Shown piece by piece: positions 6,127-38,427 of a DNA stretch of 64,000 bases. The DNA is from Phytophthora quininea. Its lineage: Eukaryota; Oomycota; Peronosporomycetes; Peronosporales; Peronosporaceae. Location: contig JAAVTG010000697.1 in the NCBI GenBank assembly GCA_011947345.1, forward strand, positions 124,001 through 188,000, written 5' to 3'. Below the pieces are notes generated by a model. That model was not told the origin of the DNA, searched no databases, and saw only the letters and a list, made by a program, of their open reading frames with translations. The first letter of the stretch is position 1; the number at the start of each line of letters is the position of its first letter. A program made the translations under genes and the position numbers.

Positions 6127-6959
6127 ATGAGCGCCTCCGTCCAGCCCAAGGCCCTCCCCAGTGGCCACTTCATCCCCACCGTCGCGCTTGGCGTGTTCCA
6201 GAGTCGCCCCGGGTCCGAGACCTACGCTGCTGTGCACACCGCTCTCAAGCTTGGCTACCGCCATATCGACACTGCTACCGTCTATCGAAACGAGGAGGAC
6301 GTGGGCAGGGCCATCCGGGACTCGGGGATCCCCGCGAGCAAGTCTTCGTCACTAGCAAGTTCCTCGACGGGGCTTGGAGCTACCAAAAGGTCGTGGACGG
6401 CGTTCGTCTCAGCAACGCCAAGCTCGGTCTCAACTACATCGATCTCTACCTACTACACGCCCCGTGCTCAAGTTCTAAGCGTGCCGATGCATGGAAGGCG
6501 CTCGAGGATCTGCAGGCTGAAGGAATCGTGCGCGACATTGGCGTGTCCAACTTCGGTGAGAAGCACCTGGAGAAGCTGGCCAAGACGTGGCGTGTCAAGC
6601 CCGCCGTGAACCAGGTGGAACTGCACCCGTGGCTGCCCCGCACCGACCTCGTCAAGTACTGCGAGGCCCAGGGCATCCTGATGGAGGCGTACTCGCCGCT
6701 GGCTCGCGCCCAGAAGATGGACGACCCGGTGCTGACGGAAGTCGCGGGCGAGCTGAAGGCGACTCCGGCGCAGGTGCTGGTCGCGTGGAGTCTGGCCAAG
6801 GGCTTCGTGACGCTGCCGAAGTCGGTGAAAGAAGCACGCATTATGGAGAATTTGGATGCGGCACGGTTAGAGCTGTCAAGGGAGCAGGTAAGGCAGCTAG
6901 ACGGCTTGGACATGTACATGGTGACGGCGTGGGATCCCATCAGGGAGCATGCAGTGTAG
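6127..6959 (+). CDS. Aldo-keto reductase, copy A (apparent 1-base frameshift)
   Basis: This is an NADPH-dependent oxidoreductase of the AKR superfamily, probably cytosolic, reducing carbonyl substrates; the substrate is unknown. Family motifs are the Asp and Tyr of HIDTATVY, the Lys of VTSKF and the His of YLLHAP, the four catalytic residues. The start at 6127 (MSASVQPKALPSG) matches the start of copies B and C. At 6330-6333 a CCCC run in GGGATCCCCGCGAG shifts the frame; one more C would join both halves. Copies B and C carry the same shift. Positions 6540-6826 are identical to 12226-12512 although the rest of the gene has diverged. The gene is tail to tail with PDK-A. Confidence 0.85.
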
Positions 6960-10843: not shown

Positions 10844-10855
10844 AAGCTCGCTCTA

Positions 10856-11646
10856 GTGAAGGCGCTGCGTGATTCAACCAATTCGCTGGAGACGCGCACC
10901 AAGCTCAGCGAAGCGCTGCTGTTCTCGGCCAAGCGTTGTGGCGAGGTGCTGCCCAAGTTTGCCAAGTTGTTCGTTTACGCCTACTTGGACTGCATTCGCC
11001 CGCCTCCCTCGACAAAGCACACTCAAGCGGAAGCAAGCAAGCGCTTCCAACTGATTCAAGAGATCGACCCCGTTTCGAACACAGCCAAAGCTGAAGAACA
11101 AGGGGCGACAGATGAACTCGACAGTGAGCAAGAGCTTCTTGCGGCTTCTACGTTGCGGGCGAGCTGTCTGTCCAACCTGGCCGAAGTTTGTACCCTGTTG
11201 CAGTGGGGGCTGCAACCGTTCTTGCTTGACGTGGTCACATGCGTCTTCGGCATCCTGCAGCTTGAGCTCGAACTGGAGGCCAAGCACAAACCGAGCTCTC
11301 ATGAGGCAACCGACCAGGAAGAAGACGACGACGAGCAGCAAAAGCTGAGGAAGCACCAAGCCGAGGAGTATCAGCAGCGCGTGGTCGCTGTGCGTCGCGG
11401 TGCAGTCTTCGTTCTGCGCTACCTTGTCGAGCTATTGGGCTGGAAGATTTTGGAGCTCATGCCGGAGCAGCTCAAGCCGCTGTACCACACGCTCAAGCAC
11501 GTTGCTCGACTTGATCGAGACCGCGTCGTGGTGTTCCACGCCAACCGAGCGCTGGCCGCGTTAGGCGACGTCATGCGCGGAGAGCTCTTCCCCGCGTCGA
11601 GGAGCAGGACGCCGCCTTCGGCGTCTCGAGCCTGCGCCTTCTGTAG
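10856..11646 (+). pseudogene. 5'-truncated copy of the TANGO6/RTP1-like gene
   Basis: The sequence is the C-terminal third of the gene at 22543-25934, carried on the left arm and cut off at the arm boundary (10850). It keeps the RTP1_C2-type HEAT segment (RRGAVFVLRYLVELLGWKI). It has no start region of its own and upstream lies a PDK relic, so it is probably not expressed as a functional protein. A CCCC run at 11590-11593 makes the frame run on to 11743; with one more C the frame ends at TAG 11644-11646, as in the full gene. Confidence 0.8.
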
Positions 11647-11777
11647 GTTAGAAGCAGAGCTGGGCGCTCGCTCAATACAAGCGAGTCGTTTGACGTTGGT
11701 GTTGAACATGATCTGCGTGATCAGGATGATGGGCACGCTTTGATTACGATGAGACCTTCCCGCCTTGGACATGTTCG

Positions 11778-11785
11778 CTCATTCC
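11778..11785 (+). promoter_or_regulatory. Oomycete initiator-like element of AKR copy B
   Basis: CTCATTCC matches the initiator core (TCAYTYY) of oomycete promoters and lies 28 bp before the ATG at 11813. The mirrored element is at 22404-22411 in front of copy C. Confidence 0.55.
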
Positions 11786-11812
11786 GGAAGATACCCCGTC
11801 GCCGACACTGCC

Positions 11813-12645
11813 ATGAGCGCCTTCGTCAAGAGCAAGACCCTCCCGAGCGGCCACAAAATCCCCGCCGTGGCGCTCGGCGTGTATCAGAGCCCGCCCGGGT
11901 CGGAGACGTACAACGCCGTGGCCAGCTCGCTCAAACTTGGCTACCGCCACATCGATACGGCCACGTTTTACCACAACGAGGAGGACGTGGGCAAGGCCAT
12001 CAAGGACTCGGGGATCCCCGCGAGGAGATCTTCGTGACCAGCAAGTTCTGGCAGCCGACGTGGAAGTACCAGGAGGTCGTGGACGCCGTGCGTCTCGGCA
12101 ACACCAAGCTCGGCCTCGAGTACATCGACCTCTACCTGCTGCACGCCCCTTTCGACGGCGCCACGCGAGCCGACGCCTGGAAGGCCCTCGAGGACATGCA
12201 GAGCGAGGGTCTGGTGAGAGACATCGGCGTGTCCAACTTCGGTGAGAAGCACCTGGAGAAGCTGGCCAAGACGTGGCGTGTCAAGCCCGCCGTGAACCAG
12301 GTGGAACTGCACCCGTGGCTGCCCCGCACCGACCTCGTCAAGTACTGCGAGGCCCAGGGCATCCTGATGGAGGCGTACTCGCCGCTGGCTCGCGCCCAGA
12401 AGATGGACGACCCGGTGCTGACGGAAGTCGCGGGCGAGCTGAAGGCGACTCCGGCGCAGGTGCTGGTCGCGTGGAGTCTGGCCAAGGGCTTCGTGACGCT
12501 GCCGAAGTCGGTTAAGGAGGCGCGCATCAAAGAGAACTTGGACGGGGCCAAGTTCACGCTGTCGGAAGTGCAGATGGCCAAGCTGGACTACCCCGACTCG
12601 TACATTGTGACGGCTTGGGATCCGGTCAAGGACCACGCCGCCTGA
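11813..12645 (+). CDS. Aldo-keto reductase, copy B (apparent 1-base frameshift)
   Basis: NADPH-dependent aldo-keto reductase, about 277 residues when read across the frame break. The start MSAFVKSKTLPSG lies just after an initiator-like element. Catalytic residues are Asp and Tyr in HIDTATFY, Lys in VTSKFW and His in YLLHAPF. A CCCC run at 12016-12019 shifts the frame exactly where copy A shifts, so a shared sequencing undercall or a shared ancestral change is needed to explain it. It is the mirror image of copy C (21544-22376) and is tail to tail with the intronless PDK. Confidence 0.87.
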
Positions 12646-21543: not shown

Positions 21544-22376
21544 TCAGGCGGCGTGGTCCTTGACCGGATCCCAAGCCGTCACAATGTACGAGTCGGGGTA
21601 GTCCAGCTTGGCCATCTGCACTTCCGACAGCGTGAACTTGGCCCCGTCCAAGTTCTCTTTGATGCGCGCCTCCTTAACCGACTTCGGCAGCGTCACGAAG
21701 CCCTTGGCCAGACTCCACGCGACCAGCACCTGCGCCGGAGTCGCCTTCAGCTCGCCCGCGACTTCCGTCAGCACCGGGTCGTCCATCTTCTGGGCGCGAG
21801 CCAGCGGCGAGTACGCCTCCATCAGGATGCCCTGGGCCTCGCAGTACTTGACGAGGTCGGTGCGGGGCAGCCACGGGTGCAGTTCCACCTGGTTCACGGC
21901 GGGCTTGACACGCCACGTCTTGGCCAGCTTCTCCAGGTGCTTCTCACCGAAGTTGGACACGCCGATGTCTCTCACCAGACCCTCGCTCTGCATGTCCTCG
22001 AGGGCCTTCCAGGCGTCGGCTCGCGTGGCGCCGTCGAAAGGGGCGTGCAGCAGGTAGAGGTCGATGTACTCGAGGCCGAGCTTGGTGTTGCCGAGACGCA
22101 CGGCGTCCACGACCTCCTGGTACTTCCACGTCGGCTGCCAGAACTTGCTGGTCACGAAGATCTCCTCGCGGGGATCCCCGAGTCCTTGATGGCCTTGCCC
22201 ACGTCCTCCTCGTTGTGGTAAAACGTGGCCGTATCGATGTGGCGGTAGCCAAGTTTGAGCGAGCTGGCCACGGCGTTGTACGTCTCCGACCCGGGCGGGC
22301 TCTGATACACGCCGAGCGCCACGGCGGGGATTTTGTGGCCGCTCGGGAGGGTCTTGCTCTTGACGAAGGCGCTCAT
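21544..22376 (-). CDS. Aldo-keto reductase, copy C (apparent 1-base frameshift)
   Basis: Reverse-complement copy of AKR copy B, with the same four catalytic residues and the same frame break, here the GGGG run at 22170-22173. The start codon is at 22376-22374, and an initiator-like element is at 22404-22411. It lies 167 bp downstream of the RTP1-like gene on the same strand. Confidence 0.87.
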
Positions 22377-22542
22377 GGCAGTGTCGGCGACGGGGTATCT
22401 TCCGGAATGAGCGAACATGTCCAAGGCGGGAAGGTCTCATCGTAATCAAAGCGTGCCCATCATTCTGATCACGCAGATCATGTTCAACACCAACGTCAAA
22501 CGACTCGCTTGTATTGAGCGAGCGTCCAGCTCTGCTTCTAAC

Positions 22543-25500
22543 CTACAGAAGGCGCAGGCTCGAGACGCCGAAGGCGGCGTCCTGCTCCTCGACGCGGGGA
22601 AGAGCTCTCCGCGCATGACGTCGCCTAACGCGGCCAGCGCTCGGTTGGCGTGGAACACCACGACGCGGTCTCGATCAAGTCGAGCAACGTGCTTGAGCGT
22701 GTGGTACAGCGGCTTGAGCTGCTCCGGCATGAGCTCCAAAATCTTCCAGCCCAATAGCTCGACAAGGTAGCGCAGAACGAAGACTGCACCGCGACGCACA
22801 GCGACCACGCGCTGCTGATACTCCTCGGCTTGGTGCTTCCTCAGCTTTTGCTGCTCGTCGTCGTCTTCTTCCTGGTCGGTTGCCTCATGAGAGCTCGGTT
22901 TGTGCTTGGCCTCCAGTTCGAGCTCAAGCTGCAGGATGCCGAAGACGCATGTGACCACGTCAAGCAAGAACGGTTGCAGCCCCCACTGCAACAGGGTACA
23001 AACTTCGGCCAGGTTGGACAGACAGCTCGCCCGCAACGTAGAAGCCGCAAGAAGCTCTTGCTCACTGTCGAGTTCATCTGTCGCCCCTTGTTCTTCAGCT
23101 TTGGCTGTGTTCGAAACGGGGTCGATCTCTTGAATCAGTTGGAAGCGCTTGCTTGCTTCCGCTTGAGTGTGCTTTGTCGAGGGAGGCGGGCGAATGCAGT
23201 CCAAGTAGGCGTAAACGAACAACTTGGCAAACTTGGGCAGCACCTCGCCACAACGCTTGGCCGAGAACAGCAGCGCTTCGCTGAGCTTGGTGCGCGTCTC
23301 CAGCGAATTGGTTGAATCACGCAGCGCCTTCACTAGAGCAGGGATCGCAACGTCGGAATGGACATCTGCCAGCGCAGCTAGCCCCTGCACGGCTGCGAGG
23401 AACACGTAGCTTTCGGAATCGTGGAGCTGAAGCAAAAGACACCAGCGAGTGTGTGCACCCTCGGCGTCCAGTCTGCATCATGGGCATGCGAGTTACTTTG
23501 GCGTACGAGCTTTGTCAGTGACACCACTCCACGCGCACGCAGTGGCACCAGCTCGCTAGAGAGATCTGTTTGGGCTTCGCGCAGCACTTTCTCGAAGCTT
23601 TGTTCACCGCTGGTACTTGTGTTACAACCATCACTTGCCCCACGACTAAGAATGTGGGCACGAGCACTACTGGCCAATTCAGCCGCTTCTGGTCTCGCGT
23701 GGCGAGATAAAGCTTCTAGCACTGGCAGCATTGTACGAAGCTGCTGCTCTTCTGGATCACTTCGGTGGGTCGATCCAGCCTCGAGGATAGTCATGACAAC
23801 GCCCAGACAAATCATCAGGATTTCATCTCCTTCTTCCTCTTGTTCAACTTCTTCAGCTACTTGGATGGAATTTCCATCCGTCTGCTCTTTATCCACGATC
23901 TTAGCTGTAGAAATGACATAGGTTTCTAGCGCAGTTCCAATGCACTGGAGAACGCTGGTAGCGCTGCGCAGCACGGAAGGCCCCAAACACTCGATGAGCG
24001 CTAGGAGCAGTGTCAGCACTATTTCGATTCCTGCTGCGCTTGTTGGGGTTTTCATCGCCTCATACAACGTCAATAGCGAAACACTATCCGTCTCTAGGCG
24101 AACATCATCTGGTGCATCTTGCTTTCGAACGTGCATGTAGGTCAATAACAGCGACGAAAAGAGATCGCCGACAACTTCCGACTTCTCAAGCTCTTCGGCA
24201 CTCAGCAGCTGCACCAATGGCATTATCAGCACTTTAAGTGATCTCGTTGCATCTCTCTCGTCGGTTTCTGTTGCTTGTAAAGAAGTTTCCACGAGCCGAA
24301 TCGTTATTCCACCGTCTCCTCCTGCACAAAACTCGCGCAATGGCCTCCAAATTCCCGTTGAACAATTCCGTTCATATCCACACGAGAGTAGCGTACGATG
24401 AAGTGGCAGTGTTACTGGGAGAACGCTCACTTGAAGCAACAAGGCTGCGCTCGAGCACGAACGGATCCATGTCGTGAGCGACTCGCGCAGCGGTGTTGCC
24501 AGGAAACTCTTGCTTGAAGTAGCAAAAGCATACATGTGAACAAAGGGTCGAACCAATGGAGCGAGAGCCTGCAGGAACCGCTGAGAGGGGAGGACCGCAA
24601 AGAAGCAGATGCGCAATTCCAACACACCGCGTCAGAGTAATTTCACTAACGTCTCCACGAAGAGTAACCGGGTCACTTCGGGTGTTCTCGTAGACGAGCA
24701 GCGGATGAAAGAGTGTCGACAGGATCTGTGTATCGAAGAGCGCTGGATGGCGCGTAGCAATCTGATCTGCTAGTAGTGCCACCATCTCACCTAAGAGCTT
24801 ACTGCTCGTGTTGCCTTTCTCGGGTGTCACTGCTGCCAGCAGCAGCTTACAAACTTGTGCGCACAAGGCGCTGGCGTACTGCTCAGGCCCCACATCACTT
24901 GGGCACTGACAGATCAGCGTCGCAACCTGCATTCTGGCTTGTGTGTTGCCGTCCTCCACGGCGCCAAGAAGCATCTCAATTGTGGCGACGATGCCACCGT
25001 CTTGCATCAGCAACCGCGACAATAAACTTCCGCATCTTGCCTTGAACCGCTTTCCTTCGGCACGTTGGGCCGCAGCGGGCCCAACTTGCCCCAGCGCCGC
25101 TCGCAAGCTGCTCATGCTCATCTTCACGGGTAATAGTCGGACCACCATCTCTCTAAGTCGAGTAAATTCCATTTCCACGGGTGTCTCAATCTTGGAGTCG
25201 CCTGCTACTTCTCCATACACCAACAGCGCCAGCAGCTCCACCACGTACTTGGGTAACAAGATCGGCTGGAACTGAGGCAGCGACAACAAATGCAGCTGAG
25301 CTTGCGCGATGCTGAGCAGCTCCGCGATCTCCTCCTCTTCCACTCTCACAGCGATCCCGCTGTACTTCCGATATCCCCACATTAAAACCTGCTTGAAACT
25401 GCAAAAACAGCAACACGAACCGCAGTTAGGCCAAAAGTCCCCCACTGACTCAGCATCGCTGCAGCTTACTGTCAAGAGTTTTCGTCGGTCTTCTCTTGTC

Positions 25501-25934
25501 GATAGACTGCAGAATCCCAGGAGCGACGCGCGGATACGCGCCCCAGCAGAAGAGCAGCTCTGTAGCTGCCTGCAGCACCGAGTAGTCGCGCAGACTGAGC
25601 AGTCCAGCAGGCGCCTTGGGCTTTACTGCTTGGCGGGCCGACACTGGCCCCATCCTCTTCTTCTCCTGCAGCTCTAGAGCGTCTATACGCGTCATGCAGA
25701 GTCCCAGGCGCTGGAACGACGGCACCAGGCCGCGGCGCCACACTTCATCGTGCGGTGCAGAACCCCGCGGCCACTGAGCGCGTGCACAGCCTTCAGCACC
25801 TCGCGGTCCACGACAGCTTCGTCGGCAGTCCCCTTGATATCTCGCAGGGCGTCCACGAACTCCCGCAGAGAGCGCATCAGCGCCTGTTGCTCCTGCACCA
25901 ACTTGTCCATCAAGTCTGTGAAAGTGTACGCCAT
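22543..25934 (-). CDS. TANGO6: TANGO6/RTP1-like HEAT-repeat protein (3 exons)
   Basis: Homologues (yeast Rtp1, animal TANGO6) act in cytoplasmic assembly and import of RNA polymerase II and in secretory traffic. Exons as read: 25934-25470, 25398-24651 and 24580-22543; the introns are 71 and 70 bp with GT-AG ends. The protein is alpha-helical throughout. C-terminal segments around LHDSESYVFLAAVQGLAAL and RRGAVFVLRYLVELLGWKI fit the RTP1_C1 and RTP1_C2 domains, and an acidic loop (QEEDDDEQQ) separates them. Four places need one extra base: AAG/GTG near 25741, AAAA 25384-25387 (weaker), AAAA 23434-23437 and GGGG 22596-22599. With the last repaired the stop is TAG at 22545-22543. The start ATG is 55 bp from that of the divergent SARNP gene. 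Confidence 0.82.
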
Positions 25935-25989
25935 CACGATTTTGACTACCCGGTCACATAGATTTTCGCGCAAAAAGCATATCGCCCGC
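25935..25989. promoter_or_regulatory. 55-bp bidirectional promoter between divergent start codons
   Basis: The start codons of the RTP1-like gene (25934) and the SARNP-like gene (25990) face away from each other with 55 bp between. Both genes must share core promoter DNA, or one initiates inside the other. No classic initiator match is obvious. Confidence 0.6.
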
Positions 25990-26998
25990 ATGACCAGCGC
26001 CAGCATGAACCCCAAGAAGATGAAGGTGAGCGAGCTGCGCGCGGCGCTGGAGCAGCGCAACCTGAGCTCCAACGGACTGAAGACGGAGCTGATCCAGCGG
26101 CTGGAGCTGGCGCTGGATGAGGAGGAGTTCGGCAGCGCGGCGCAGGAGGAGCTTAAGCCGCCGAGTCCCGAAAAGAGCAAGAAGAAGGAGCCCAAGAAGG
26201 AGAAGGCGCCGAGTCCCAAGAAGACCAAGAGCAAGAGCAAGACGCTGTCACCCTTCAAGAAAGAGGAGCCCGCTCCGGCCGTCGTGGAGAAGCCGGAGCC
26301 GAAGCCCGTTGCCGCAGAGCCTGTCACCGTTGTTGAGAAGGAGGAGGGGAAGCATATGGGGAGACGCAGAACAGCACGGCAGAAGCAGAAGCAGAGCCCC
26401 CAGCAAACCCCTGACGGAAGAGGAGAAGCGTGCGGCGCGTGCAGCCAAGTTTGGCATCCCGCCGAGCCTCGAGGACAAGAAGGTCAGTAGCAGGAGGACT
26501 GTGGAGTTGGCGAAGGGGTGGCGGCAGTTGACGCGCTTGCTTTTTGTGCGTCGTGTGTGCAGGCCCAGCGTGCCAAGCGTTTCCACCTTCCTAGTGCAGG
26601 TGCGTTTACAGGCTGGCGTCGTGCCGGATACCCAGAGAGAGATAACTGGTCTATTGCATTGTGCTGGTGGTGTTTGCCTGCAGTGGCGGAGGAGGAGCGT
26701 GCGAAGCGACTGAAGCGTGCCGAGAGATTCCAGCTGGAGACGAAAGATACGGTGCGTGGTTGGTTCACTGCGACGGCGTCGATGTCGTTGAGTGGAGGCG
26801 CTGACAGCTCGCAACTTGCTGCGTGTGCTTTGTGTGTAGCTGGAGAAGAAGAAGGAGGCCCGGGCAGAGCGCTTCGGGCTCAACGCCGAGGAGAAGCGGC
26901 GTCTGGACCGCGCCAAGCGCTTTAACCTCGAGACGTCCGAGGGGTTCGAGGAGAAGCGACGACAGCGTCTCGAGCGCTTCGCGGCGGCGTCCAAGTGA
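25990..26998 (+). CDS. SARNP: SAP-domain THO1/SARNP-like mRNA export factor (4 exons)
   Basis: Homologues (SARNP/CIP29, yeast Tho1) bind nucleic acid and help load mRNA export factors in the nucleus. Exons: 25990-26482, 26563-26599, 26684-26751 and 26840-26998. Introns of 80, 84 and 88 bp (GT-AG) keep the frame. Residues 12-43 form a SAP domain (SELRAALEQRNLSSNGLK). A Lys/Pro/Glu-rich linker follows, then repeated RAxRFxL units (RAKRFHL, RAERFQL, RAERFGL, RAKRFNL), the Tho1/MOS11 C-terminal pattern. Two runs in the linker, GGGG 26346-26349 and CCCCC 26397-26401, each appear to lack a base; with both added the linker becomes acidic and joins the conserved part. Confidence 0.83.
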
Positions 26999-27054
26999 GT
27001 GGCGACGGGCCCCCACAGACCGTAGAGCTTCGGTCCAGACGCGCCAGCTTGCAC

Positions 27055-27076
27055 AGAGAGAGAGAGAGAGAGAGAG
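27055..27076. repeat. (AG)11 microsatellite
   Basis: Perfect dinucleotide run downstream of the SARNP-like gene. Confidence 0.9.
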
Positions 27077-27355
27077 TTTCGTCGCGCGCAATGACTCGTA
27101 GCCCGACAGTTAGTACAAAATGCAACAGAATATCGTGCGCATAGTCGTCTCCTTGGTGCCATCGTCGTCTCCTTGGTCGCCGCGTTGTCGTCATTGGCCT
27201 ATTATCGCACTTACCTGGGACATACAAACGCCCGTATACACACGCGTCGCGAGCTGTCAGTCCGATCCGAGGGGGATTCTTCAGCAGTCCACTTCAAGCC
27301 TCGAAGACCCCGGAGGGCTACGAACGCTTCCTCTCCACCAAGCAGCAGCAGCAGC

Positions 27356-30300
27356 ATGGCGACGCCCCCGCCCATCCACCGCCAGGCCTCCAAGTCGGAC
27401 GCGGACGCCGAGCTCCTGCCTGTGGAGGTGGGCAACACGATCTGGGTGCCCGGCTCCGAGCGCGTGTGGGACAAGGGCACCGTCATGGCCATCGGTGGCC
27501 TTAAGGTGACGGTGCGCACGCAGGCCGGTAAGATCCAGCAGGTGGACCGCGGGCTGGCGCTGCCGCTCAACCCGCGCGAGGCCGACGACATGACGTCGCT
27601 CTACTACATCCACGAGCCGGGCGTGCTGCACAACCTGGAGGAGCGCTCCAAGCTCGACGGCGGCGACGGCACCGGCCAGAAGCCCTACACTTTTATGGCC
27701 AACGTGCTGATCGCCGTCAACCCGCTGCGGGAGCTGCCCAACCCGTCCATCAGCCAAGTGGTCAACACGGCCGGCAGCGCGCCCCACCCGTACTCGGTGG
27801 CCGAGATGGCCTACCAGCAAATGGTGTACAACTCGGGCACCGACCAGCCCACGAACCAGTCAGTCGTCATCAGCGGAGAGAGTGGCGCCGGCAAGACCGA
27901 GTCGTCCAAGATCGTGCTGCGGCACTTGACCACGCGCGGCCTTTACGGCAAGAAGGCGCGCGGCAACGACATTGAGACGCTCAGCCGCGACCGACAGGAC
28001 CACGGCACATCGCTGGACCACCGGCTCATCGAGCAGAACCCGATTCTGGAAGCCTTCGGCAACGCCAAGACGCTAAGGAACTACAACTCGTCGCGCTTCG
28101 GCAAGTTCATGAAGCTGCAGTTCACTGCGGACGGAGAGTTCAAGCTGGCCGGTGCCCTCGTGGAGACGTACTTGCTGGAGAAGTCCCGACTCGTGTACCA
28201 AGTGGACGGCGAGCGCAACTTCCACATCTTCTACCAGCTGCTGGCGGGTGCGTCGGCAACGGCGCGGAAGGAGTTCGAGCTAACGAAGGCGGAGGACTTT
28301 TGCTACCTGAACCAGAGCGGCTGCTACATCGCCGAGGAGACTGACGACCACGCGTGCTTCAACGCTGTTGTGCGCGGTCTGACCTGTGTGGGTCTGTCGG
28401 AGGATGTCCAGCACGTGATCTTCTCGGTGGTCGCAGGTCTACTGCATCTCGGTAACATTGAATTCGAGGAGGAAGACACACCTGAGGGCGAAGCTGCTGT
28501 GATCGAGAAGGACTCGGCGAAACGTGCACTTGTTGCCGCATCCAGATTGTTGGGCGTGAAGGAACAGGACTTGTCTAAGGTGATCATGACGCGTGATATT
28601 GTGACGCGCGAGGAGACCTACAACGTGCGCCGGAACGAACAGAACGCCGTGTACACGCGTGATGCTATCGCAAAGGCGTTGTACAGCCGTATGTTCGACT
28701 GGGTCATTAAGCAGGTGAACGCGTCGCTGGGCCACGACCCGGCCCCGCTTCCGTACATTGGTGTGCTGGATATCTTCGGTTTTGAATCGTTCCAGCGGAA
28801 TGACTTTGAGCAGCTGCTGATCAACTACACGAACGAAGTGCTGCAGGCGACGTTCAACAACCAAGTGTTCATTGCCGAAATGGAATTGTACAAGCGTGAG
28901 GGTATCACGGTGGGCAAGATTAAGTGGCCGGATAACCGCGAATGTGTGGACCTGATCGCATCGAAACCTAACGGCATCTTGAGTCTGCTGGACGCCGAGG
29001 CCATGAACCCGCAACCTAACGACGCGAAATTCCTGAGAACGCTGCATCAGAAGCACGCAAAACACCCGTACTTCCCGCGACCGCACCCGAAGGACATGGA
29101 GCACATGTTTATCGTTCGTCACTTTGCCGGCGCTGTGAGCTATACGATCGGATCGTTTATTGACAAGAACAATGACACGATTCCGCCCGACATGTCGGGC
29201 CTGTTTTTGGGATCCACGAACAAGCTGGTGCCCGCTTTTTCAAGCAGGAGGCGGAAGGGAGCCGACCAGGAAAGAAGAAACTGACGCGCAGTGTGGCTGC
29301 GAAGTTCTCGAACCAGATGCAGGAGCTTGTGGACACTCTTGATGCGACGCGATGCAATTTCATCCGCTGCATCAAGCCTAACGCTCTCATGCGTGTTGGG
29401 ATGTTCGATCCGCGCTACGTCGTTGGGCAGTTGCGTTGTCAGGGTATTATGCAAACGGCTCAAGTGCTCAAGGTGGGTCTGCCCACTCGTGTGAGTTACA
29501 GCGAGCTGGTGGGCGCCTACAAGAAATACATGCCACCCGACGCGCAGCGTTTGTTCGCTAACCAGAGCGACCCAACGCTCATCACAGCCATTTTGTGGGC
29601 GTTCCAGGTTCCAATGGATGAGTACAAACTCGGTATCACGAAGTTGTTCTTCAAGTCTGGCAAAATTGCTGTGCTGGACTCCATTTTGAAGATTAACTGG
29701 GCGGTGGATGGTCCGCACATCGTGGGACGTATGAAGCTGTGGCTTGCTCGTCGGCGCTGGCGCGTTGGTCTCGCGAAGATTATTGCACAGAACCGCTTTG
29801 CTAAGCTGCTACGCCGCATCCATTCCGTCGTAACTCAGTGGTGCGTATTCAACGCTGGTGGCGCGCACTGACCGTGCGCCGTGACTTCAAGAAGAAGCGC
29901 TCTGCTGTGGTTGTGGTTCAAGCTCTGTTCCGCGGCATGACGGCTCGCCGCCTTTTCAAGTCTAAGAAGCAAGAAATGCTAGCACTGGCAGCAGCGCGTG
30001 CAGCAGAGGCAAAGAGGCAGGCAGAGGAAGCTAAACGTCGTGAAGAGGAAGCTCGGATTGCTGCTGAAACGGCTCGTCGCGAAAGCATTGCTCGTGCAGC
30101 TGCGGAGGAGGACCGCCTGCTTATGGAAGCGGAGGCTCGCGCTGCTGAGGAGGAGGCTATTCGCCTTGCTAAGGAAGCGGCAGCTGCTGTTGCCGAGGCT
30201 GAGGCCGCTGCTGCAGAAGCGACGGCTGCGGTCGAGCATGAACGCCAGGCTGAGCTGCGTGCTATCGCAGAGGCGAAGGAGCTGGAGGAGCGTATGGAGC

Positions 30301-31777
30301 GCGAGCGCGAGGAGGCCGAGCGTCGCAAGGAGCAGGCCTTGCTGGAGGCTGCCAGCGTGAGTGCTAGTCTGCTCAGCGGTCTTGCGCAAGTCAACAGTGT
30401 GTCGACGCCTGCAGGCCAAGTGCACGTGGTGGAGATCCCCGACGATGTTTCGCAGGAGAACCGCGAGCAACTGCAGCAGTTGAACGACTTGTTGCTGAGC
30501 GGTGCTATCGCGCAGGCTGAATATGATGAGCTGGTGCCATTCCTGCTCGAGAAGCCCGAGGAAGTGCCGTCCGGTGCTGCTCTCACCGCCGAGCAGGAGG
30601 AATCACTGAGCCGTTTGTACACTGCGGGTGTATACGGCATCCAGATTCGCTGTCCGGCTTGTGGGGCGACTAACAACACGGCCAACGGCAACCACTGCGA
30701 CGAGTGCGGTTCGTTGCTCACAACTAGTGATGACTCGGCTGCGGCGAATGATCCTGCTTACTACGGCTACCGCGGGCAATCTCGTCAGCAGAGAAGCATG
30801 TCGACACTGACGGCACCACTTGGCTCGTTCTCAACGGAGGGCGGTCGTATTGTGATTCACGATGGTTACTTTGAGGCGCAAATGCACCGCACACAGGTGC
30901 TTCAAGACGACAATTACACCGAGTACACCGTATATGTGCTGCGTTGTCAGTGGCAGCCAAAAGATTCGAGCGAGTCGCCCTTTACCTGGCTGGTTTCTCA
31001 CCGCTTCAGCGTGTTTGAGAAGCTGCACAAGGACCTGAAGCGTAAGATTCCGACGGCTGTGGCAACGATGCCCTTATTCCCGAGAAAGCACGTGTTGGGT
31101 GGGGTGTTCAAGGGCAAGACGGGCAACTCGAGTGCTATCGTGGAGGAGCGTAAGCAGGGCCTGGAGCGATACGTTGCGCAGGTTTTGGAACTTTGCGCTC
31201 GCCTTCCTGAGACTCTGAACGTACCGGAGTTGGACCGCTTCTTGAATGTGTCTCGCCAGGTCGAGCAGTTCCGCCGCCAGGTCATTTCGGGAGGAACTGG
31301 CGGTGACGAGGAGGCTGCTCCATTTGGTCGAGCGCTCAACGTGAACGCTGGCGGAGCCGAGGGATGGCGGCACGTGAGCAGGCTCGTTTGCCTACGGAGT
31401 TGCCCACGCCTTTGGACGAGGAAGAGCTTTCTCACACTGAACAGGCGGTTGCCTTGCTGAATGCGTCTATCCGCAGCGCGCGCGGCGACTTGCGCCGTGA
31501 TCCTACCGTGCAGCACCACCTCAAGGTGTGCGTGCAGCTGCTGCCGCGTCTGCAGATTTCGGCCAATTTGGACAATCCGTTCGCGAACGTGGACCTCATT
31601 CCGCGCGCAATGCAGTGCCAGGAAGACCTGGAGACGACAATGGGGTTGTACAATGACTCGCTGCTGGCTGTAACGGAAACGTATGCGCTCTCAGCACAGG
31701 AGGGCAGTGGCGTCCAGGCCCCGCCACCGTACGTTCCGGGCCAGCAGAACTCGTATCAGCCCAGCTACGGCGTGTAA
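27356..31777 (+). CDS. Oomycete PX-domain myosin heavy chain
   Basis: Actin-based motor of about 1,470 residues, no introns. Order: SH3-like N-terminal module (VEVGNTIWVPGSERVW), motor domain with P-loop GESGAGKT, switch I NYNSSRFGKF and switch II DIFGFESF, converter, IQ-like neck (IQRWWRALTVRRDFKK), a long Ala/Glu/Arg coiled-coil (about 29990-30360), a four-Cys zinc-ribbon-like motif (CPACG...CDECG), a PX domain (about 30840-31280) and a C-terminal domain with NPF. PX domains bind phosphoinositides, so it probably moves or tethers endosomal membranes. The architecture fits the Phytophthora-restricted class with a PX tail. Three breaks (CCC 29231-29233, CAG/GTG at 29838, GGG 31361-31363) each need one base. 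The ATG at 27356 is preferred to the in-frame one at 27173. Confidence 0.9.
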
Positions 31778-32017
31778 TCGACTGCCTCACCGCAATAACG
31801 ACGTGATCGCAAGACAGTAGAGGCGGCAAGCGACGATTGTGTGTACACGATGCGAAGTTAGCACGCCAGGAATCGCAATCGACTGCCGGAACGTACACTG
31901 AGCGAAGGGAATAGCAAGAGCCGCCGGGAGCTTTCATATTGCTGCGTATGTTTTTTCAAATACATCCATTTTCCTTGCACATTTTCGCTGCGTTAATTAC
32001 ACGTGCTCGTCGTCCTG

Positions 32018-33527
32018 CTAAGCGGCGCTGGCAGGCACGACGTTGCGTACCTGGAGCGCTGGAATCTCACTATGTGCGTGAGAAAGCGGCTCTTGCTCGG
32101 AATGCTGAGCTTGCTGGTCTTGGAAGCGAACTTGGGCACGTGGGGCCACCTCCGAGACAGCCAGGAGAGCGTCGTTGTAGAGCGCGACGGCTTGTTGCAG
32201 GTCCTCTAGACATTGCATGGCGCGTGGGATCAGCTCTGTGTTTGCGAATGGGTTGTCTAGGTCGGCGGTGCGCTGCAGTGCGGGCGCAAGCTGAACGCAC
32301 ACGTCCAAATGATGTTGAACCGTGCCGTCTCCGCGCACGTCGCCTCTTGCTCGGCGAACTCCATCGGCGAGCCCTCGCACCGCACCCTCCGCCTGCGCCA
32401 ACTCTGCTGCATCCATCGGCGCAGCTTCGTGGCGCAGTGGAGGAGGGTTTGCAGGGCCTGCAAATGCTGGAAATGCTGGGAAGGGGGAAGACGTCGACGC
32501 TGTAGCTGTCGATGTTGAAGCAGTCGACTGACGCAGAGCGTCCAGGCCGACGGAAGCAGGAACAGTGGCCTCCCTTGGCGTTGAGCTCGGAACAAGTGCA
32601 CCTGGTGTGACACATCCAGGAACTCGTCGAGCTCCGGAGTCGCCTGCGCGTGCGGCAAATGTGCACACATCTCCAGCAGCCGAGGCATGTAGACTGCCAG
32701 ATCTTGTTTGCGCTTCTCGAGACGGCCGGTGAAATGATACTTGGCCGGGAATGGAGGCAGCGTCGCCAGAGATGAGCGCGACAACCTCCTCTTGAGCGCC
32801 TTGTGCAGTCTCTCAAATTGGCTGAAGCGCTGTGAGACGTACCAAGTGGCTTCGGACTGCGCCCCACCTGCTCCCGACCGCGGTTCCCAGCGACAGCACA
32901 TGACAAACACTTCGCAGGCGCCACTGGCCGACGTCGCAATCGTTTGTGTGCCCTGCATCTGGCAGGAGAAGAATCCGTCGAGGATCAGCACACGGCCGTC
33001 TTCGGACGCAGTGAACTCGCCGGTGGGTCTCACGACGGGAGCCACGGCCGCCACGATGGGCCACGTCGATCTCCGCGTCGCTGTGGCAGACAGCTCGTCT
33101 CCAATCGTGAGACGGGAATTGCAGACGTCGCAGCGAGACCGACGCAGCGGGTCGTTGCAAGTGCCGCACCCAGGACAACGCAGCTGCAGTCCCACAACAC
33201 CACCAGCAGGAGCAGGAGCAGGAGCTCGGGCCAGTATGGCTGGAGCTGAGACTGGCGTAGACTCTGGAATAGACGCTACGGCTGTGTGCTGTCCATCGGA
33301 CGGCAGCGTGCCTGCATTATTGGGGTGCTGGGCTTGGGCCAAAGCGGTGGCGAAGGTGTCGTCGTCCCGGGTGGCAGTGTCTTGGTTGGCGGGATTGGGC
33401 TGGCTGTTGTTGCTGGGGACAGCACGAAGGGCAGCAACTCGTCGTACTCCCGACGGGACAGCGAGCCGCTCAGCAGCGAGTCGTTCAGGTGGCGGCGCTG
33501 CTCGCGGCGCTCGGAGGCCTCGGTCAT
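32018..33527 (-). CDS. Motorless paralogue of the myosin tail (zinc ribbon + PX)
   Basis: About 500 residues that align in order with the myosin tail of the convergent gene. LNDSLLSGSLSRREYDELLPF matches the segment before the zinc ribbon. Next come CPGCG...CDVCN, a PX domain with SQRFSQFERLHKALKRRL, and the C-terminal domain with TVQHHLDVCVQL and LDNPFANTELIPRAMQC. There is no motor domain on either side. Two breaks are one-base losses in runs: GGGG 33414-33417 and CCC 32572-32574. The NPF tripeptide conserved in both paralogues could bind EH-domain endocytic proteins (inference). The ATG at 33527 is preceded in frame by a stop before 33590, though an upstream exon cannot be excluded. The 240 bp separating it from the myosin stop hold nothing recognisable. 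Confidence 0.78.
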
Positions 33528-33554
33528 CGTCGTCGGGCGAGAGGAATCGGCAAT

Positions 33555-33695
33555 GAGCTGCTCGCGCTTCTTGCGGCGGTTTGTTCTCTAGTGTTGGACA
33601 CCTGGACACAGAGATTTGAACTGTGACAGGTTTCATGCTACCGCAATATAGCTGCTCCACGAGCGGAGCAAGGTCGAATGGCAGCCCCTCCCCCA
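33555..33695 (+). repeat. Diverged direct repeat, copy 1 (pairs with 37416-37555)
   Basis: Segment covering the 5' end of the tail-only gene and its upstream flank. It aligns without large gaps to 37416-37555; shared words include CGCTTCTTGC, TTTGTTCTCT and GTGACAG. By eye about 80% identical. Confidence 0.7.
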
Positions 33696-34825
33696 GACGT
33701 ATTGGCATGGTGACAAGGGATATTTATCACGACAAGCCACAGACTTAGCAGCAAACTCAACAACGCTATCAATTACCGCCCAAGCAGATATTCTGGCTCC
33801 ATCGCTATTCCAGAGGAGTTAAGTTATACACGCCGACAAGGATATTGTTTGTGCTCTCGCGTTGGGCATCTTGTACATGACGCTTGTCAACCAGGAACGT
33901 CTAATTTATTGCGTTTGTCGGTGCATCACACAAATCACAACCAGTCACGTGAACGGGCTCACGACCTTGATAAAGACATTTGCAACCTCCACGAACAGTG
34001 CATGCTTGAGCCTTTTTAACCTGGTTTTGGAATCGAACACTGGCAGTAGGCGTCAGATTTTTCTTTTGCTGGTCCACTCAGAGAAAATCTTCTGCTTCTT
34101 CATCATTGTATCACTCCGCGCGAAGAGAAAGTCTCGCCGAGTCCATACTCGGTGGGCTCCATAACGGACGCCACATTCTTTATTCTACCTCAAGCGTAGC
34201 GTCTCGTACTCCTCTACTCGTTCGTGTGGGGACTCGAATAAGGGAAGAAGGACCCTGTCAAGCTCAGACACGGTTCTGGACAAGTTTGCTTGGAGCTGGG
34301 TACTCATCGAGCGCGAGATACCGCTTTCCCAGAAGGGCTGAACCGCTAGAGAACTACCCCTGTGTTGACTCAACTTTCGTCGACCTTGGACTCGGGCAGC
34401 GACTGCGTGACTTCTGGCCAGTTTGTGCTGATTGTAACACCACAGCAGCGTGACATGGACAAGTACCTGGTCGCGCACGGAGACCGGCGGATTTACGTCG
34501 AGATAGGCATCGCAAGCATTGGGCATTCAACCGGGGATCCTGGTCGAAGTGGAGGCTCGGTGAGCATTGAATGCAGCTTATCCCTGGCGGCCACAAATCG
34601 GAACGGCCCTTATGTCGGAACAATACAATATCTGCTTGAAGGTGCAATTTTAGATCCGCCCTCCTGTCAAAGGAAATACGATTGGTGGTAAGCTGCTTGC
34701 GTCGAGCGGAAGAGAAAGGAGAGACGAGTACTCTCCCTTTTACTGCGTCCGAATCAAGCAAAACCTCGCTGTGTTAGCTTGCCATTATCCAAGTCGCTCC
34801 ATTCCTGTCACCAGCTGTTACAATC
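33696..34825. other. Intergenic before the pogo transposase, no recognised gene
   Basis: Only short unsupported ORFs are seen. The left end of the pogo element probably lies here, but I could not identify its terminal inverted repeat. Confidence 0.4.
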
Positions 34826-36659
34826 ATGTCTTCCAAGCCGGCGGTTAACGACTTAGTGTCTCGGGCTGTAGCTTTCGAGAAAGCTATGGTCTACGTGAAG
34901 AAAGAAGGCGTGTCGTTGGCGAGAGCTGGAGCGGCCCATGGGGTCTCCAAAACCTCGTTGCATCGGCGCTGTACCGGTACGGTACCAGTAGATGCTCGCA
35001 AAGGCCGCAGAGCTCTACTCACCCCCGACGACGAAGCCGGTATTGTGGAAACGATATTACTCCGCGCACGACATGGAGTCTGTATGACGGACAGCGAGCT
35101 CCGTATTCTAGCTCGTCGCATAGCGATCAGGAAACATGGCGTCCTTCCTGACACATTCCCGTCCAAGAAGTGGTCACTGCGCTTCGTAACGAGACACGGC
35201 AGCCTCATTTCACGCAAGCGGTCGCAGATCCTGGACGTGAAGCGGTACGACATGTCAACTACAGATAGGATCAAGGACTACCACGAGAATCTGCAGAAGG
35301 CGATGAAGGGTATGCAGCCAGGCCAGATATGGAACTGCGATGAAACGGGATTCTGTCCGCAAGGTAGAAAGCCTCCTCGTGTGATTTGTCCTAAAGGAAT
35401 GAGAGCCAACCTCGTCCGATCCAATGAGAGGGAGAATGTGTCGGTGATGGCATGCGTGAGTGCTGCTGGCGATCGATTGCCGCCCATGTTCATATTTCCG
35501 GGGAAAAGGAGGCAACTGCACTGGATGAACGGAACCGATGATGATGCAGTATGCGCGATGACCGATTCATCAAATATTAATGGCTACTTATTCCTGCATT
35601 GGCTGAAGTTTTTCAACGAACACCTAATGCAGCGTCAAGTTTCAAAACCTGCTCTCCTTATCCTGGACGGTCACTTTTCACATGTCAATGGGCCTGTACT
35701 CGACTACGCCGATGAGAACGACATCATGATATTCGTGCTTCCCTCGCATACAAGCCACTTTACTCAGCCACTCGACGATGCTGTTTTCGCTGCCTTGAAG
35801 AGGAACTATGAGAAGCTTCTTAATGATTTCCCGCTTCGACGAGATCGATCTCCAACCAAAGAAGACGTGGCCGGCTTAGTCACGGCGGCTTGGAAACAAT
35901 CCGTCTCTGTTCTCAACTGTTTGATAGCTTTCCGAAGAACTGGAATTTTCCCGTTATGTCTTGAGACGATGCTCAAGAGAGTTATCGGTAGCCAACCTGC
36001 TACGTCAGATCTCCCGCACGTCAGCTACTTATCCAGGCTGCCCCAGCTTTCCGACAGACAAAAGCGCAAGCTCGCTAGAGATGGGATGACTGAAGACGCA
36101 GTAACCGCATTGTACATGGGCATCGAGCAGTTCAAGAGTATTGCACCGAGTACTCAGCATCAACAAAAAAAAGCGCACCTTTGTCGACGGAGGAATTTTG
36201 ATGACACACCCGGAAATGAAAGCTGCTGTGCTCAGGGCGGAAGCTGAACGAAAGCAGAAAGCAGAAGATCGTGTTACCAAAGCTCGAGAACGTCTAGAGA
36301 AGCGCGAACAAAAACAGCAAGCAGCCATCATTAAACATTTCTTGAAGGAGACAAAACTTGCAGCCAAAAACAAGCTGAGCGTAGAAGCCAAGAAACGCAG
36401 AACTTGCAGGAAGACCGTGGTGAAGACGACGTTCCCAAATGGTACAGTTCCAACTTCAAGTGGTACAAGAGCTGATTCGGCGGTTTGCACCGCTACGGAT
36501 GACTCACAGGAGAACGATAAGGTTGCCTTCACCTTGCTACTTGGGTCAGACACAAGTAGAGATCAAGTCGCAGCTAATTCGGCGCTATCTGGACACCAGG
36601 ACAGCCCCTCAAGACCCCAGTTAACCACTTGGTCAACCGATCTTACGGCTGCAGTTTGA
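34826..36659 (+). CDS. Pogo-like (DDE_1) transposase, nearly intact
   Basis: Tc1/mariner-superfamily transposase of the pogo type, acting in the nucleus to cut and paste DNA. An N-terminal helix-turn-helix (VSLARAGAAHGVSKTSLHRR) is followed by a CENP-B-like region and a DDE domain: Asp in IWNCDETGF, Asp in LLILDGHFSH, Asp in HFTQPLDDAVF. The ORF shifts at the A8 run 36165-36172; with one more A it continues to 36659 through a basic coiled-coil (EAERKQKAEDRVTKARERLE). The helix-turn-helix, catalytic triad and length look complete, so this copy may be recent. Confidence 0.87.
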
Positions 36660-38427
36660 GATGATCTTGGAATTCGTATATAATCAGATGGTATTCCGAT
36701 ATTTGACCCTGTTTGAGCGAGGTGAAGTGACTCCAAGCTACAAAGGCAATAACGAAACCTTCCTTAGCTTCGATTGTCGACAGCGATACAATACAGTCGT
36801 AGCATACTCTTTTACCTTTACGGTGATACCTTGTTTGTACAAAATGATAGCATATTACGGGAGATACATCATTTGCCGTTAGCCGTTCCGTTAAATGTCC
36901 CTTGGGGATATAGTGGACAAGCACGACATCCATGCAGAGAGAGGTGGTTTTTATATATGAGAATATTCGGAAACATATCCTGGCCGTTCTCCACGATTTA
37001 GTGCTGCGACTAAGTGCAGAGGAGCTGCAGCGACTTCTGGCTGACGATTGAGAGCTTCGCACCGATCTGACCACGCTCGGTGACTCCACAGTCCACAGTC
37101 CACGGACAATCTCCAATCTCGTCGTCGTTGTCTTCGTGGTTTACCAGGACTAGTTGGCGAAACGCCGCGTCCGTGATGAAGAACGCGTACAACAAGTGGA
37201 ACTAGCCAGAAGCCATAACCTTGTTACTACTAACACAGCCCTGGACAAGCCCGTTTAAAGCATTTGAGAGAGGATCATGCTCAGCCGCAATACGAGTTAG
37301 AGCAGATCAACGGTGCCACGACGCTCACCTGTTCCGAACGCAAGTAGTGAACGCGGCGGGGATGGAAAAACCTCGTCGCCAATGGTACAACGATCCTGAC
37401 CGGACTGACTAAACTGCTCCCGCTTCTTGCAGCAGTTTGTTCTCTCGTGTTGGGCACCTAGACATAGAGGTTTGAACAGTGACAGATTTTATACTACTCC
37501 AATATGGTTCATAGCGTGAGAGAGCAAAGTGCCGAATGACAGCCCCCAAGAATTTTGTTCCATCATGCCTGCACTAGTGATTGTGTAGGCGGGGTGTCTA
37601 CGGCGCTGTTGAAAATGTGTACTGAGGGACGGACTGTATGAGGAAGCGCCCTTTTGTCGGATAAACGAGCGCCCCTAGCAGCAAGTTGACAATGTTGAAG
37701 AACGGGCGTCTGCCGTCAGCATGCCATCGTTGGCAAGACGAACGTCTCTTGGATGGATGAGGGTCGGCTGGTGAAATGTTGCCAGTGCTGAAAGCGTGAC
37801 TACTACTGTTGGTTTGATGCATACATCAACACACTTTCGATGAAAGGCAACATCATCAGCACGATGAACGAAACTCGAATACGTGGTGCCGACGACGTAT
37901 GTTAGCTGAATGTCGTCGCAGAGAGAAATTGTGCGTTGTTCGAAGCGGTAGCCCAGTCGACCGTCGGACGGCTATACGAAAATGCCTCGTCGGTTTAGTT
38001 GATTATTGCTCGGACGTTGCCTGGATCGGTGCCCAGGCAGTCGTTTGGACAAGCAGCTAGCTCACTGTTGCCGGTACCTCGTGCCCATGGATGTGCTGGA
38101 CCGTCGAGGACTGAAAGCTGCTGAGTGGTTGGGCGAGAATTTGCGATGGTGTTGACGTCGAGACTGCTGAACTCGTTGATTTCCATCGCCTCGATTAGTG
38201 GCAAGGCTGAGGCATTGCGGCAGACGATCGTATCATACATGCATTTGTTGAAACTACTGAATATAGCGACGCCGAAGGTTCTGATGTGACTGCAACCTGA
38301 TCGCCAAGCGATGTTGGTAGCATAAAGACTGTGAAAGTGTTTCTGCTGCCGAATTGAAATGCTGGTGTGCTGAAATTATTCATTATTCGCAAGCGGATAT
38401 TACACCATTGTTGCCCCCTCGCCGTCT
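36660..38427. other. Intergenic, repeat-containing, no recognised gene
   Basis: It holds the 3' flank of the pogo element and copy 2 of the diverged direct repeat. Minus-strand ORFs at 37995-38392 are open but show no known domain. A short resemblance to the beta-mannosidase C-terminus (LIEAMEINEF versus SIEAMDIDEL) may mean a decayed copy. Confidence 0.4.
37416..37555 (+). repeat. Diverged direct repeat, copy 2
   Basis: Copy of the 5' flank of the motorless myosin-tail gene, without the coding part that would follow. About 3.9 kb from copy 1, with the pogo element between. Confidence 0.7.

What the first reader, a model, noticed from the sequence alone, without database searches (positions are those of the whole stretch)
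27356..33527. Myosin and a motorless copy of its own tail, placed tail to tail
The gene at 32018-33527 aligns with the myosin tail from just before the zinc ribbon through PX to the C-terminal NPF domain and has no motor. It could compete with the myosin for phosphoinositide membranes or cargo, acting as a natural dominant-negative or adaptor. Two breaks are simple one-base losses, and conservation of the Cys pairs, PX and NPF suggests it is under selection. I know of no described oomycete system of this kind.
Basis: partly seen in the sequence, partly recalled or inferred. Interest (0 to 1): 0.78.

Follow-up and report, generated by a model that had tools for sequence, protein, structure and literature searches.

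The report
Conserved motorless twin of oomycete myosin
Next to the gene for a membrane-binding motor protein, this Phytophthora-like water mould carries a separate gene for the motor's tail alone, and its relatives keep the same tail-only gene, so it is a real gene that probably works as a membrane adaptor beside the motor.

Summary
Window 27356-31777 (+) encodes a PX-tailed myosin with the published architecture of class XXX. Window 33527-32018 (-) encodes a separate, motorless copy of its tail (N-terminal helix pair, CxxC zinc ribbon, PX, C-terminal three-helix domain), tail to tail with 240 bases between the stop codons.

The tail gene is not a relic. Two searches gave 26 tail-type proteins, 21 with a species name (Phytophthora, Nothophytophthora, downy mildews); 22 are 402-534 aa long. 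In a tree the tails form one clade nested among oomycete myosins, beside those of Peronosporaceae; an earlier split is rejected (AU p = 0.0006). Folded parts are conserved, linkers much less.

The frame breaks are probably sequence errors: the myosin is broken too, and the allelic contig breaks partly elsewhere.

Function is inferred. I favour a PX-guided endosomal adaptor over a plain dominant-negative: the tail lost motor, IQ, coiled coil and 11 residues of a PX loop, and has conserved parts of its own, an ASAA end and, in 21 of 23 proteins scanned, an RVxF-like motif, which the window's copy lacks. Nearest known analogue: headless Myo10.

The parts
27356..31777 (+). PX-tailed myosin heavy chain, class XXX architecture; in this sequence split into four frame segments
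   Evidence: class architecture from a passage of PMC2375034
27356..29820 (+). motor domain, with a weak N-terminal SH3-like match ahead of it
   Evidence: Pfam Myosin_head 574.7 and 96.2 bits on two frame segments, Myosin_N 17.6 bits (below cut-off)
29829..29970 (+). IQ motifs (two stretches; best one 29829-29891; outer bound approximate)
   Evidence: Pfam IQ, 2 stretches
29980..30400 (+). Ala/Glu/Arg-rich stretch read as the coiled coil (recognised by eye, no coiled-coil program run)
   Evidence: translation; class description in PMC2375034
30642..30710 (+). CxxC...CxxC zinc ribbon of the myosin tail
   Evidence: Pfam DZR and Zn_ribbon_3 below cut-off; motif in 22 of 22 myosin rows scanned
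30975..31250 (+). PX domain of the myosin
   Evidence: Pfam PX 50.5 bits
31364..31774 (+). C-terminal domain of the myosin: predicted three-helix bundle, GAT-like, with NPF in the loop between helices 2 and 3
31778..32017 (.). 240 bases between the two stop codons of the convergent genes
32018..33527 (-). motorless tail paralogue gene, ATG at 33527 to stop at 32018; two frame changes in this sequence
   Evidence: homologues
33420..33527 (-). N-terminal helix pair (SHOCT-like) of the tail protein
   Evidence: tblastn; model helices 3-20 and 25-36 of the P. ramorum protein; Pfam DUF1707 (SHOCT-like) in 5 of 24 members at E up to 1, best 0.011
33121..33176 (-). CxxC...CxxC zinc ribbon of the tail protein
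   Evidence: read from the sequence; motif in 21 of 24 tail rows
32614..32985 (-). PX domain of the tail protein (Pfam core 32614-32859; outer bound approximate)
   Evidence: Pfam PX 40.3 bits; fold match of the P. ramorum orthologue's PX to PDB PX domains
32150..32425 (-). C-terminal three-helix domain of the tail protein with NPF
   Evidence: tblastn 62% to P. ramorum myosin; model helices 348-432 of P. ramorum
32021..32041 (-). conserved C-terminal end VVPASAA of the tail protein
   Evidence: ASAA end in 22 of 23 other proteins scanned

Best explanation
Shown: the gene at 33527-32018 is a motorless paralogue of the tail of the neighbouring PX-tailed myosin, with intact relatives across Peronosporaceae whose domains are conserved while linkers drift (read as purifying selection; dN/dS was not computed). 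Inferred origin: a partial duplication of the myosin's 3' end before Phytophthora, Nothophytophthora and the downy mildews diverged. Inferred mechanism: the PX domain, which keeps the basic residues of lipid-binding PX domains, places the protein on the phosphoinositide-bearing (probably PI3P, endosomal) membranes that the myosin uses. The GAT-like domain and its NPF loop hold cargo or an adaptor there. Having no motor, IQ or coiled coil, it works as a static endosomal adaptor that shares the myosin's address but not its movement, and so tunes how much membrane or cargo is coupled to actin.
Against: No lipid binding, localisation, expression or interaction data. GAT assignment is weak: Pfam below cut-off, Foldseek ranks unrelated bundles first at E 0.2, and a profile of the domain found no GAT chain in the PDB. 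The window copy shares one frame break with its allelic contig, so decay in this one species is not fully excluded. Fast evolution could partly be relaxed constraint. The clade test was chosen after the tree had been seen.
Confidence: 0.5

Rival explanations
1. Natural dominant-negative: the tail protein competes with the myosin for the same phosphoinositide and cargo and so limits motor recruitment, as proposed for headless Myo10.
For: Same PX and C-terminal domains, genes apparently kept together. [quoted passage not shown]
Against: Only 39-42% identity to the myosin's PX, 11 residues of a PX loop missing, 18 fixed differences, own conserved end and, in most, an extra motif: more divergence than a mere decoy needs.
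Confidence: 0.25
2. Phosphatase-targeting subunit: in most species the tail protein recruits protein phosphatase 1 through an RVxF-type motif in its N-terminal linker to the myosin's membrane, a MYPT1-like role evolved from the myosin's own tail.
For: R-x-V-[HRT]-F in 21 of 23 tail proteins scanned, in a linker otherwise hard to align; mean shuffle chance 0.005 per linker. The general pattern is absent from residues 40-110 of 22 myosin-tail rows. It fits the consensus [K/R]-X0-1-[V/I/L]-X-[F/W] as given in a passage of PMC10731240.
Against: Short motifs are cheap; the sequences are related, so 21 is not 21 independent events; the window's own protein, P0001 and P0025 lack it. No binding data.
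Confidence: 0.12
3. In this one species the gene is a decaying pseudogene, although relatives keep it.
For: Two frame changes in each haplotype sequence, one shared.
Against: The myosin next door has three and four changes; non-shared breaks between haplotypes; 0 stops inside the tail-gene segments; start, Cys pairs, PX, NPF and VPASAA end all present.
Confidence: 0.06
4. The tail gene is the 3' end of a second, longer myosin whose motor exon was missed, or an assembly duplication.
For: None found beyond the homology itself.
Against: No motor match in the window outside the known myosin. Homologues start close to the same Met with no motor. Present on two contigs of this genome and in 21 named species; only about 40-42% identical to the myosin over zinc ribbon and PX.
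Confidence: 0.02

Closest known systems
Class XXX myosins (Odronitz and Kollmar 2007)
   Same: The + strand gene: motor, two IQ stretches, PX; published class XXX is N-terminal SH3-like, two IQ, coiled coil, PX, in Phytophthora and Hyaloperonospora (passage of PMC2375034). The tail gene derives from this tail.
   Different: The minus-strand gene has no motor, IQ or coiled coil. The passages read in PMC2375034, PMC3942036 and PMC5583752 do not mention a motorless paralogue. Relatives of the window's myosin also occur in Pythium, Globisporangium, Lagenidium and Saprolegniales.
Headless myosin-X (Myo10)
   Same: A motorless form of a phosphoinositide-binding myosin, proposed as natural dominant negative or scaffold (passages of PMC5725431 and PMC6345916).
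   Different: Headless Myo10 is a transcript of the same gene, identical to residues 644-2062 of full-length Myo10; here it is a separate, diverged gene on the other strand.
PX-domain sorting nexins and kinases (SNX3, SNX10/11, SNX24, SGK3/CISK, p40phox)
   Different: PX domain descends from a myosin tail; zinc ribbon and C-terminal bundle instead of BAR, FERM or kinase.
TOM1 / GGA GAT-domain adaptors
   Different: No VHS domain among the families listed and sequence match to GAT below cut-off, no profile hit in the PDB.
MYPT1-type PP1 targeting subunits
   Same: RVxF-like motif beside a myosin-related targeting module in most orthologues.
   Different: No ankyrin repeats among the families listed; motif missing in the window's species; no interaction data.

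Membership tests
Class XXX myosin (gene at 27356-31777) | myosin motor domain | tested here: met
   Pfam Myosin_head, two frame segments
Class XXX myosin (gene at 27356-31777) | N-terminal SH3-like domain | tested here: inconclusive
   Myosin_N 17.6 bits, cut-off 27
Class XXX myosin (gene at 27356-31777) | two IQ motifs | tested here: met
   Pfam IQ, 2 stretches
Class XXX myosin (gene at 27356-31777) | coiled coil | not tested
   Ala/Glu/Arg-rich stretch seen by eye only
Class XXX myosin (gene at 27356-31777) | PX domain | tested here: met
   50.5 bits
Class XXX myosin (gene at 27356-31777) | motor-domain phylogeny in class XXX | not tested
   no motor tree with reference classes was built
Myosin (tail gene at 33527-32018) | motor domain | tested here: not met
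   24 of 24 members of A2 match PX; no Myosin_head among the 20 families listed; no motor match near the gene in the window
PX-domain protein (tail gene) | PX domain over the curated cut-off | tested here: met
   40.3 bits, cut-off 21.6; 24 of 24 A2 members match at E up to 1
PX-domain protein (tail gene) | basic residues of the phosphoinositide site (Arg of RF/Y, Lys of PPxxxK, later Arg) | tested here: met
   patterns in 23, 24 and 23 of 24 rows, the window's C79 copy included; aligned with CISK-PX; which residues matter is recalled
PX-domain protein (tail gene) | binds phosphoinositide | not testable with these tools
   needs a lipid-binding assay
GAT domain (C-terminal bundle) | sequence match to GAT | tested here: inconclusive
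   10 of 24 tail members at E up to 1, best 0.003, P. ramorum's 12.8 bits against a cut-off of 31; 1 of 4 myosins (0.0042) and not the window's piece; no PDB profile hit
GAT domain (C-terminal bundle) | three-helix GAT fold | tested here: inconclusive
Headless-Myo10-type isoform | motorless product of the same gene | tested here: not met
   separate gene on the opposite strand, 40-42% identical over zinc ribbon and PX
PP1-targeting protein | RVxF-type motif | tested here: inconclusive
   21 of 23 relatives; absent in the window's copy
PP1-targeting protein | binds PP1 | not testable with these tools
   needs a pull-down

The most novel reading that the evidence does not exclude
The myosin's own tail gave rise, by partial duplication, to a stand-alone phosphatase-targeting subunit of that myosin's membrane: PX puts it beside the motor and the RVxF-like linker brings PP1, an oomycete counterpart of MYPT1 of wholly different origin, secondarily lost or altered in the window's lineage.
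Probability: 0.1. Interest if true: 0.8.

Novelty: new variant of a known kind. Interest (0 to 1): 0.52.

Why it matters
The motorless myosin tail that I found described, headless Myo10, is an isoform of one gene. Here a family that includes many plant pathogens appears to keep a separate, fast-diverging tail gene beside its PX-myosin. It makes two questions directly testable in Phytophthora: whether the tail has work of its own on endosomes once freed from the motor, and whether class XXX myosins are regulated through their membrane address. In the names shown the proteins are hypothetical, unnamed or PX-domain proteins, with one 'myosin-like' (Plasmopara) and one 'Phox homologous domain' (P. 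cactorum); one search adds a second 'myosin-like' (P. cinnamomi). So the link to the myosin seems largely unnoted.

Tried and rejected
Rejected: relic or pseudogene as a general account (intact relatives in many species); an early duplication before Pythium and Phytophthora split (AU p 0.0006; the group was chosen after the tree had been seen); origin from the second PX myosin at C558/C77, which is 33% identical to the window myosin's PX region and was not hit by the tail-protein search; NPF as a separate domain (it is a loop of a helical bundle).

Led nowhere or limited: dN/dS between species, because no DNA of other oomycetes was at hand (I did not scan the viral or prokaryote contig collections for it); the two haplotypes differ by too few substitutions in the tail gene (of 66, one falls in the 32-kb bin and none in the 33-kb bin). 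Both tail-protein searches scored only the roughly 8000 candidates sharing most words, and P0025, though part of the query alignment, was not returned, so absence outside Peronosporaceae is not shown. A profile of the C-terminal domain found no GAT chain in the PDB. Inverted-repeat search around the neighbouring transposase: 0 pairs. A genome-wide search for the myosin motor family did not complete in four tries. Literature: (oomycete, myosin, class XXX) 0 papers; searches listed no paper that, by title and start of abstract, describes a motorless tail gene in oomycetes (one search listed 8 of 277, one search listed 10 of 2,922); I read only passages of the papers cited. Raines 2012 and Sousa 2006 were seen only as reference entries.
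Full report
What is there. The window lies in an 87.2-Mb, 993-contig assembly that seems to hold both haplotypes for this region: contig C79 matches window 21907-36897 at 99.1%, with 66 substitutions and 21 indels. On the plus strand, 27356-31777, is a myosin heavy chain whose motor, IQ and PX matches pass Pfam's cut-offs, with a sub-threshold zinc ribbon. On the minus strand, 33527-32018, is a gene that aligns with the tail of that myosin from just before the zinc ribbon to near the end and has no motor. The stop codons are 240 bases apart, so the genes converge. Within the 64-kb window, at E up to 1e-3, the P. ramorum and P. kernoviae myosins match only this myosin and the tail gene, plus one reverse-strand match inside the Ala/Glu-rich stretch.

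The frame breaks. In the window the tail gene changes frame twice and the myosin three times; in C79 the counts are two and four. One of the tail gene's breaks is shared by both haplotypes; another is in the window only and another in C79 only. No stop codon lies inside the tail-gene segments, and both genes keep start, stop and domains. The myosin's segments are 90-98% identical to intact P. ramorum and P. kernoviae myosins (one over-extended P. ramorum segment 86%), so breaks in it are most simply errors of the assembly, and the same probably holds for the tail gene. Decay in this species is not excluded, because the break after PX is in both contigs.

It is a conserved gene. A search with the open C79 piece gave 25 proteins; a profile search gave 26, two of them new. 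One of the 27, P0048, contains the end of a motor and is a myosin fragment, so it was dropped. Of the 26 left, 21 carry a species name: twelve Phytophthora species, Nothophytophthora, Plasmopara, four Peronospora, Bremia, Hyaloperonospora and Peronosclerospora; five have none. Twenty-two are 402-534 aa long; four are shorter models (252-354 aa). Many start close to the ATG at 33527. In P. ramorum (PRNP1_003535 and _003536) and B. lactucae (CCR75_007928 and _007927) myosin and tail protein carry consecutive locus tags and equal contig lengths; in P. cinnamomi the contig lengths are equal. Orientation there could not be read, and a shared contig is inferred from the lengths.

When it arose. I aligned 24 tail rows and 22 myosin tails, cut from the proteins and the window's genome (46 rows; three tail-type proteins, P0020, P0024 and P0049, and two P. 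ramorum myosins, P0029 and P0030, were left out). The root was put on P0047, an unnamed and most distant myosin. The tails form one clade (100/99), nested among oomycete myosins: with the Peronosporaceae myosins and one unnamed myosin they make a set with 100/99 support, and they are sister to the Peronosporaceae myosins with only 87/71. Holding Pythium-type and Peronosporaceae myosins together without the tails is rejected, p-AU 0.000587; I chose that group after seeing the tree. Long branches usually pull outward, so a nested place is not what that artefact would give; the tool's own warning about long branches still applies. P0025, of unknown source, is the deepest tail, with a very long branch and odd composition. 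It shares the tails' short PX loop and seems to keep a little more of the myosin's upstream sequence (my reading), as expected after a partial duplication. The search could have missed distant relatives, so loss or absence in Pythium is not shown.

What is constrained. Between P. ramorum and Pe. effusa or Bremia, tail identity is 69% in the N-terminal helices, 79-82% in the zinc ribbon, 69% in PX and 73-83% in the C-terminal domain, but 22-44% in the internal linkers and 41-56% in the stretch before the end; the last six residues are identical in the three pairs compared. The myosin tails of the same pairs are 92-100% identical in the domains. So the tail gene evolves faster, yet in a domain-shaped pattern. 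Twenty-two of 23 other tail proteins scanned end in ASAA; the exception is P0025. The window's gene ends VVPASAA. The P. ramorum tail model is confident for PX and the C-terminal bundle and low in the linkers (mean pLDDT 68.9).

New parts of the tail protein. In the linker between the N-terminal helices and the zinc ribbon, 21 of 23 tail proteins scanned hold R-x-V-[HRT]-F; P0001 and P0025 do not, nor does the window's protein. Three truncated models (P0022-P0024) were not scanned. Shuffled linkers give it with a mean chance of 0.005, but the species are related. The general pattern was not found in residues 40-110 of 22 myosin-tail rows. It fits the RVxF consensus as given in PMC10731240 (passages). 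It is a lead, not a demonstration.

How it most likely works. Shown: a conserved, motorless PX protein beside its parent myosin. Inferred: its PX sends it to the membranes the myosin uses, and its C-terminal domain holds something there. It cannot pair through the myosin's coiled coil, which it lacks. Whether it acts as adaptor (preferred), competitor or phosphatase targeter is open. In animals TOM1, a GAT protein, connects endosomes to Myosin VI (passages of PMC13386808); in the oomycete myosin PX and a GAT-like bundle are in the motor chain itself, and the tail gene is that module set free.

Comparison with what is known. The myosin has the architecture of class XXX (passage of PMC2375034); PMC3942036 (passage) notes PX in P. 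infestans class XXX. The nearest analogue of the tail gene is headless Myo10, proposed as natural dominant negative or scaffold (passage of PMC5725431) and as a mask of membrane phosphoinositides (passage of PMC6345916); it is an isoform, not a gene. I found no account of the oomycete tail gene in the listings, which cover open-licence papers only and were capped.

Verdict. The dominant-negative idea is possible but not favoured. New variant of a known kind; interest moderate.

Noticed in passing
window 21907-23340, 10850-12282, 6127-6596: The stretch 21907-23340 recurs inverted at 10850-12282 at 99.4% identity, and part of it at 6127-6596 at 79% (compared through the C79 copy); the 10.8-12.3 kb copy overlaps long ORFs, one of which looks like an aldo-keto reductase by eye.
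   Followed up: partly
window 34826-36247 (+): Open DDE_1 transposase ORF with HTH_psq (over cut-off) and Tc5-type (below cut-off) DNA-binding matches, pogo-like by recall, just upstream of the tail gene; the C79 alignment covers the same stretch.
   Followed up: partly
window 33832-33900: About 68 bases upstream of the tail gene match eight other places in the genome at 81-87%; probably a dispersed element.
   Followed up: no
G000:C558:852138-856008 and C77:10656-14522 (L003-L005, L030, L031): What looks like a second PX-tailed myosin: 67-70% identical in motor DNA and 33% in the PX region.
   Followed up: no
window about 26000-27000 (+): SAP-domain gene upstream of the myosin (recognised by eye from P0026's start); models of P. 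kernoviae (P0026) and Lagenidium (P0036) carry PF02037 and PF18592 fused to the myosin, which suggests that this adjacency is older than the tail gene.
   Followed up: partly
window 31700-31774: A PPxY motif near the myosin's C-terminus (PPPYVPG here) is found in 14 of 23 myosin proteins and in none of the three named Saprolegniales ones; a possible WW-domain ligand.
   Followed up: no
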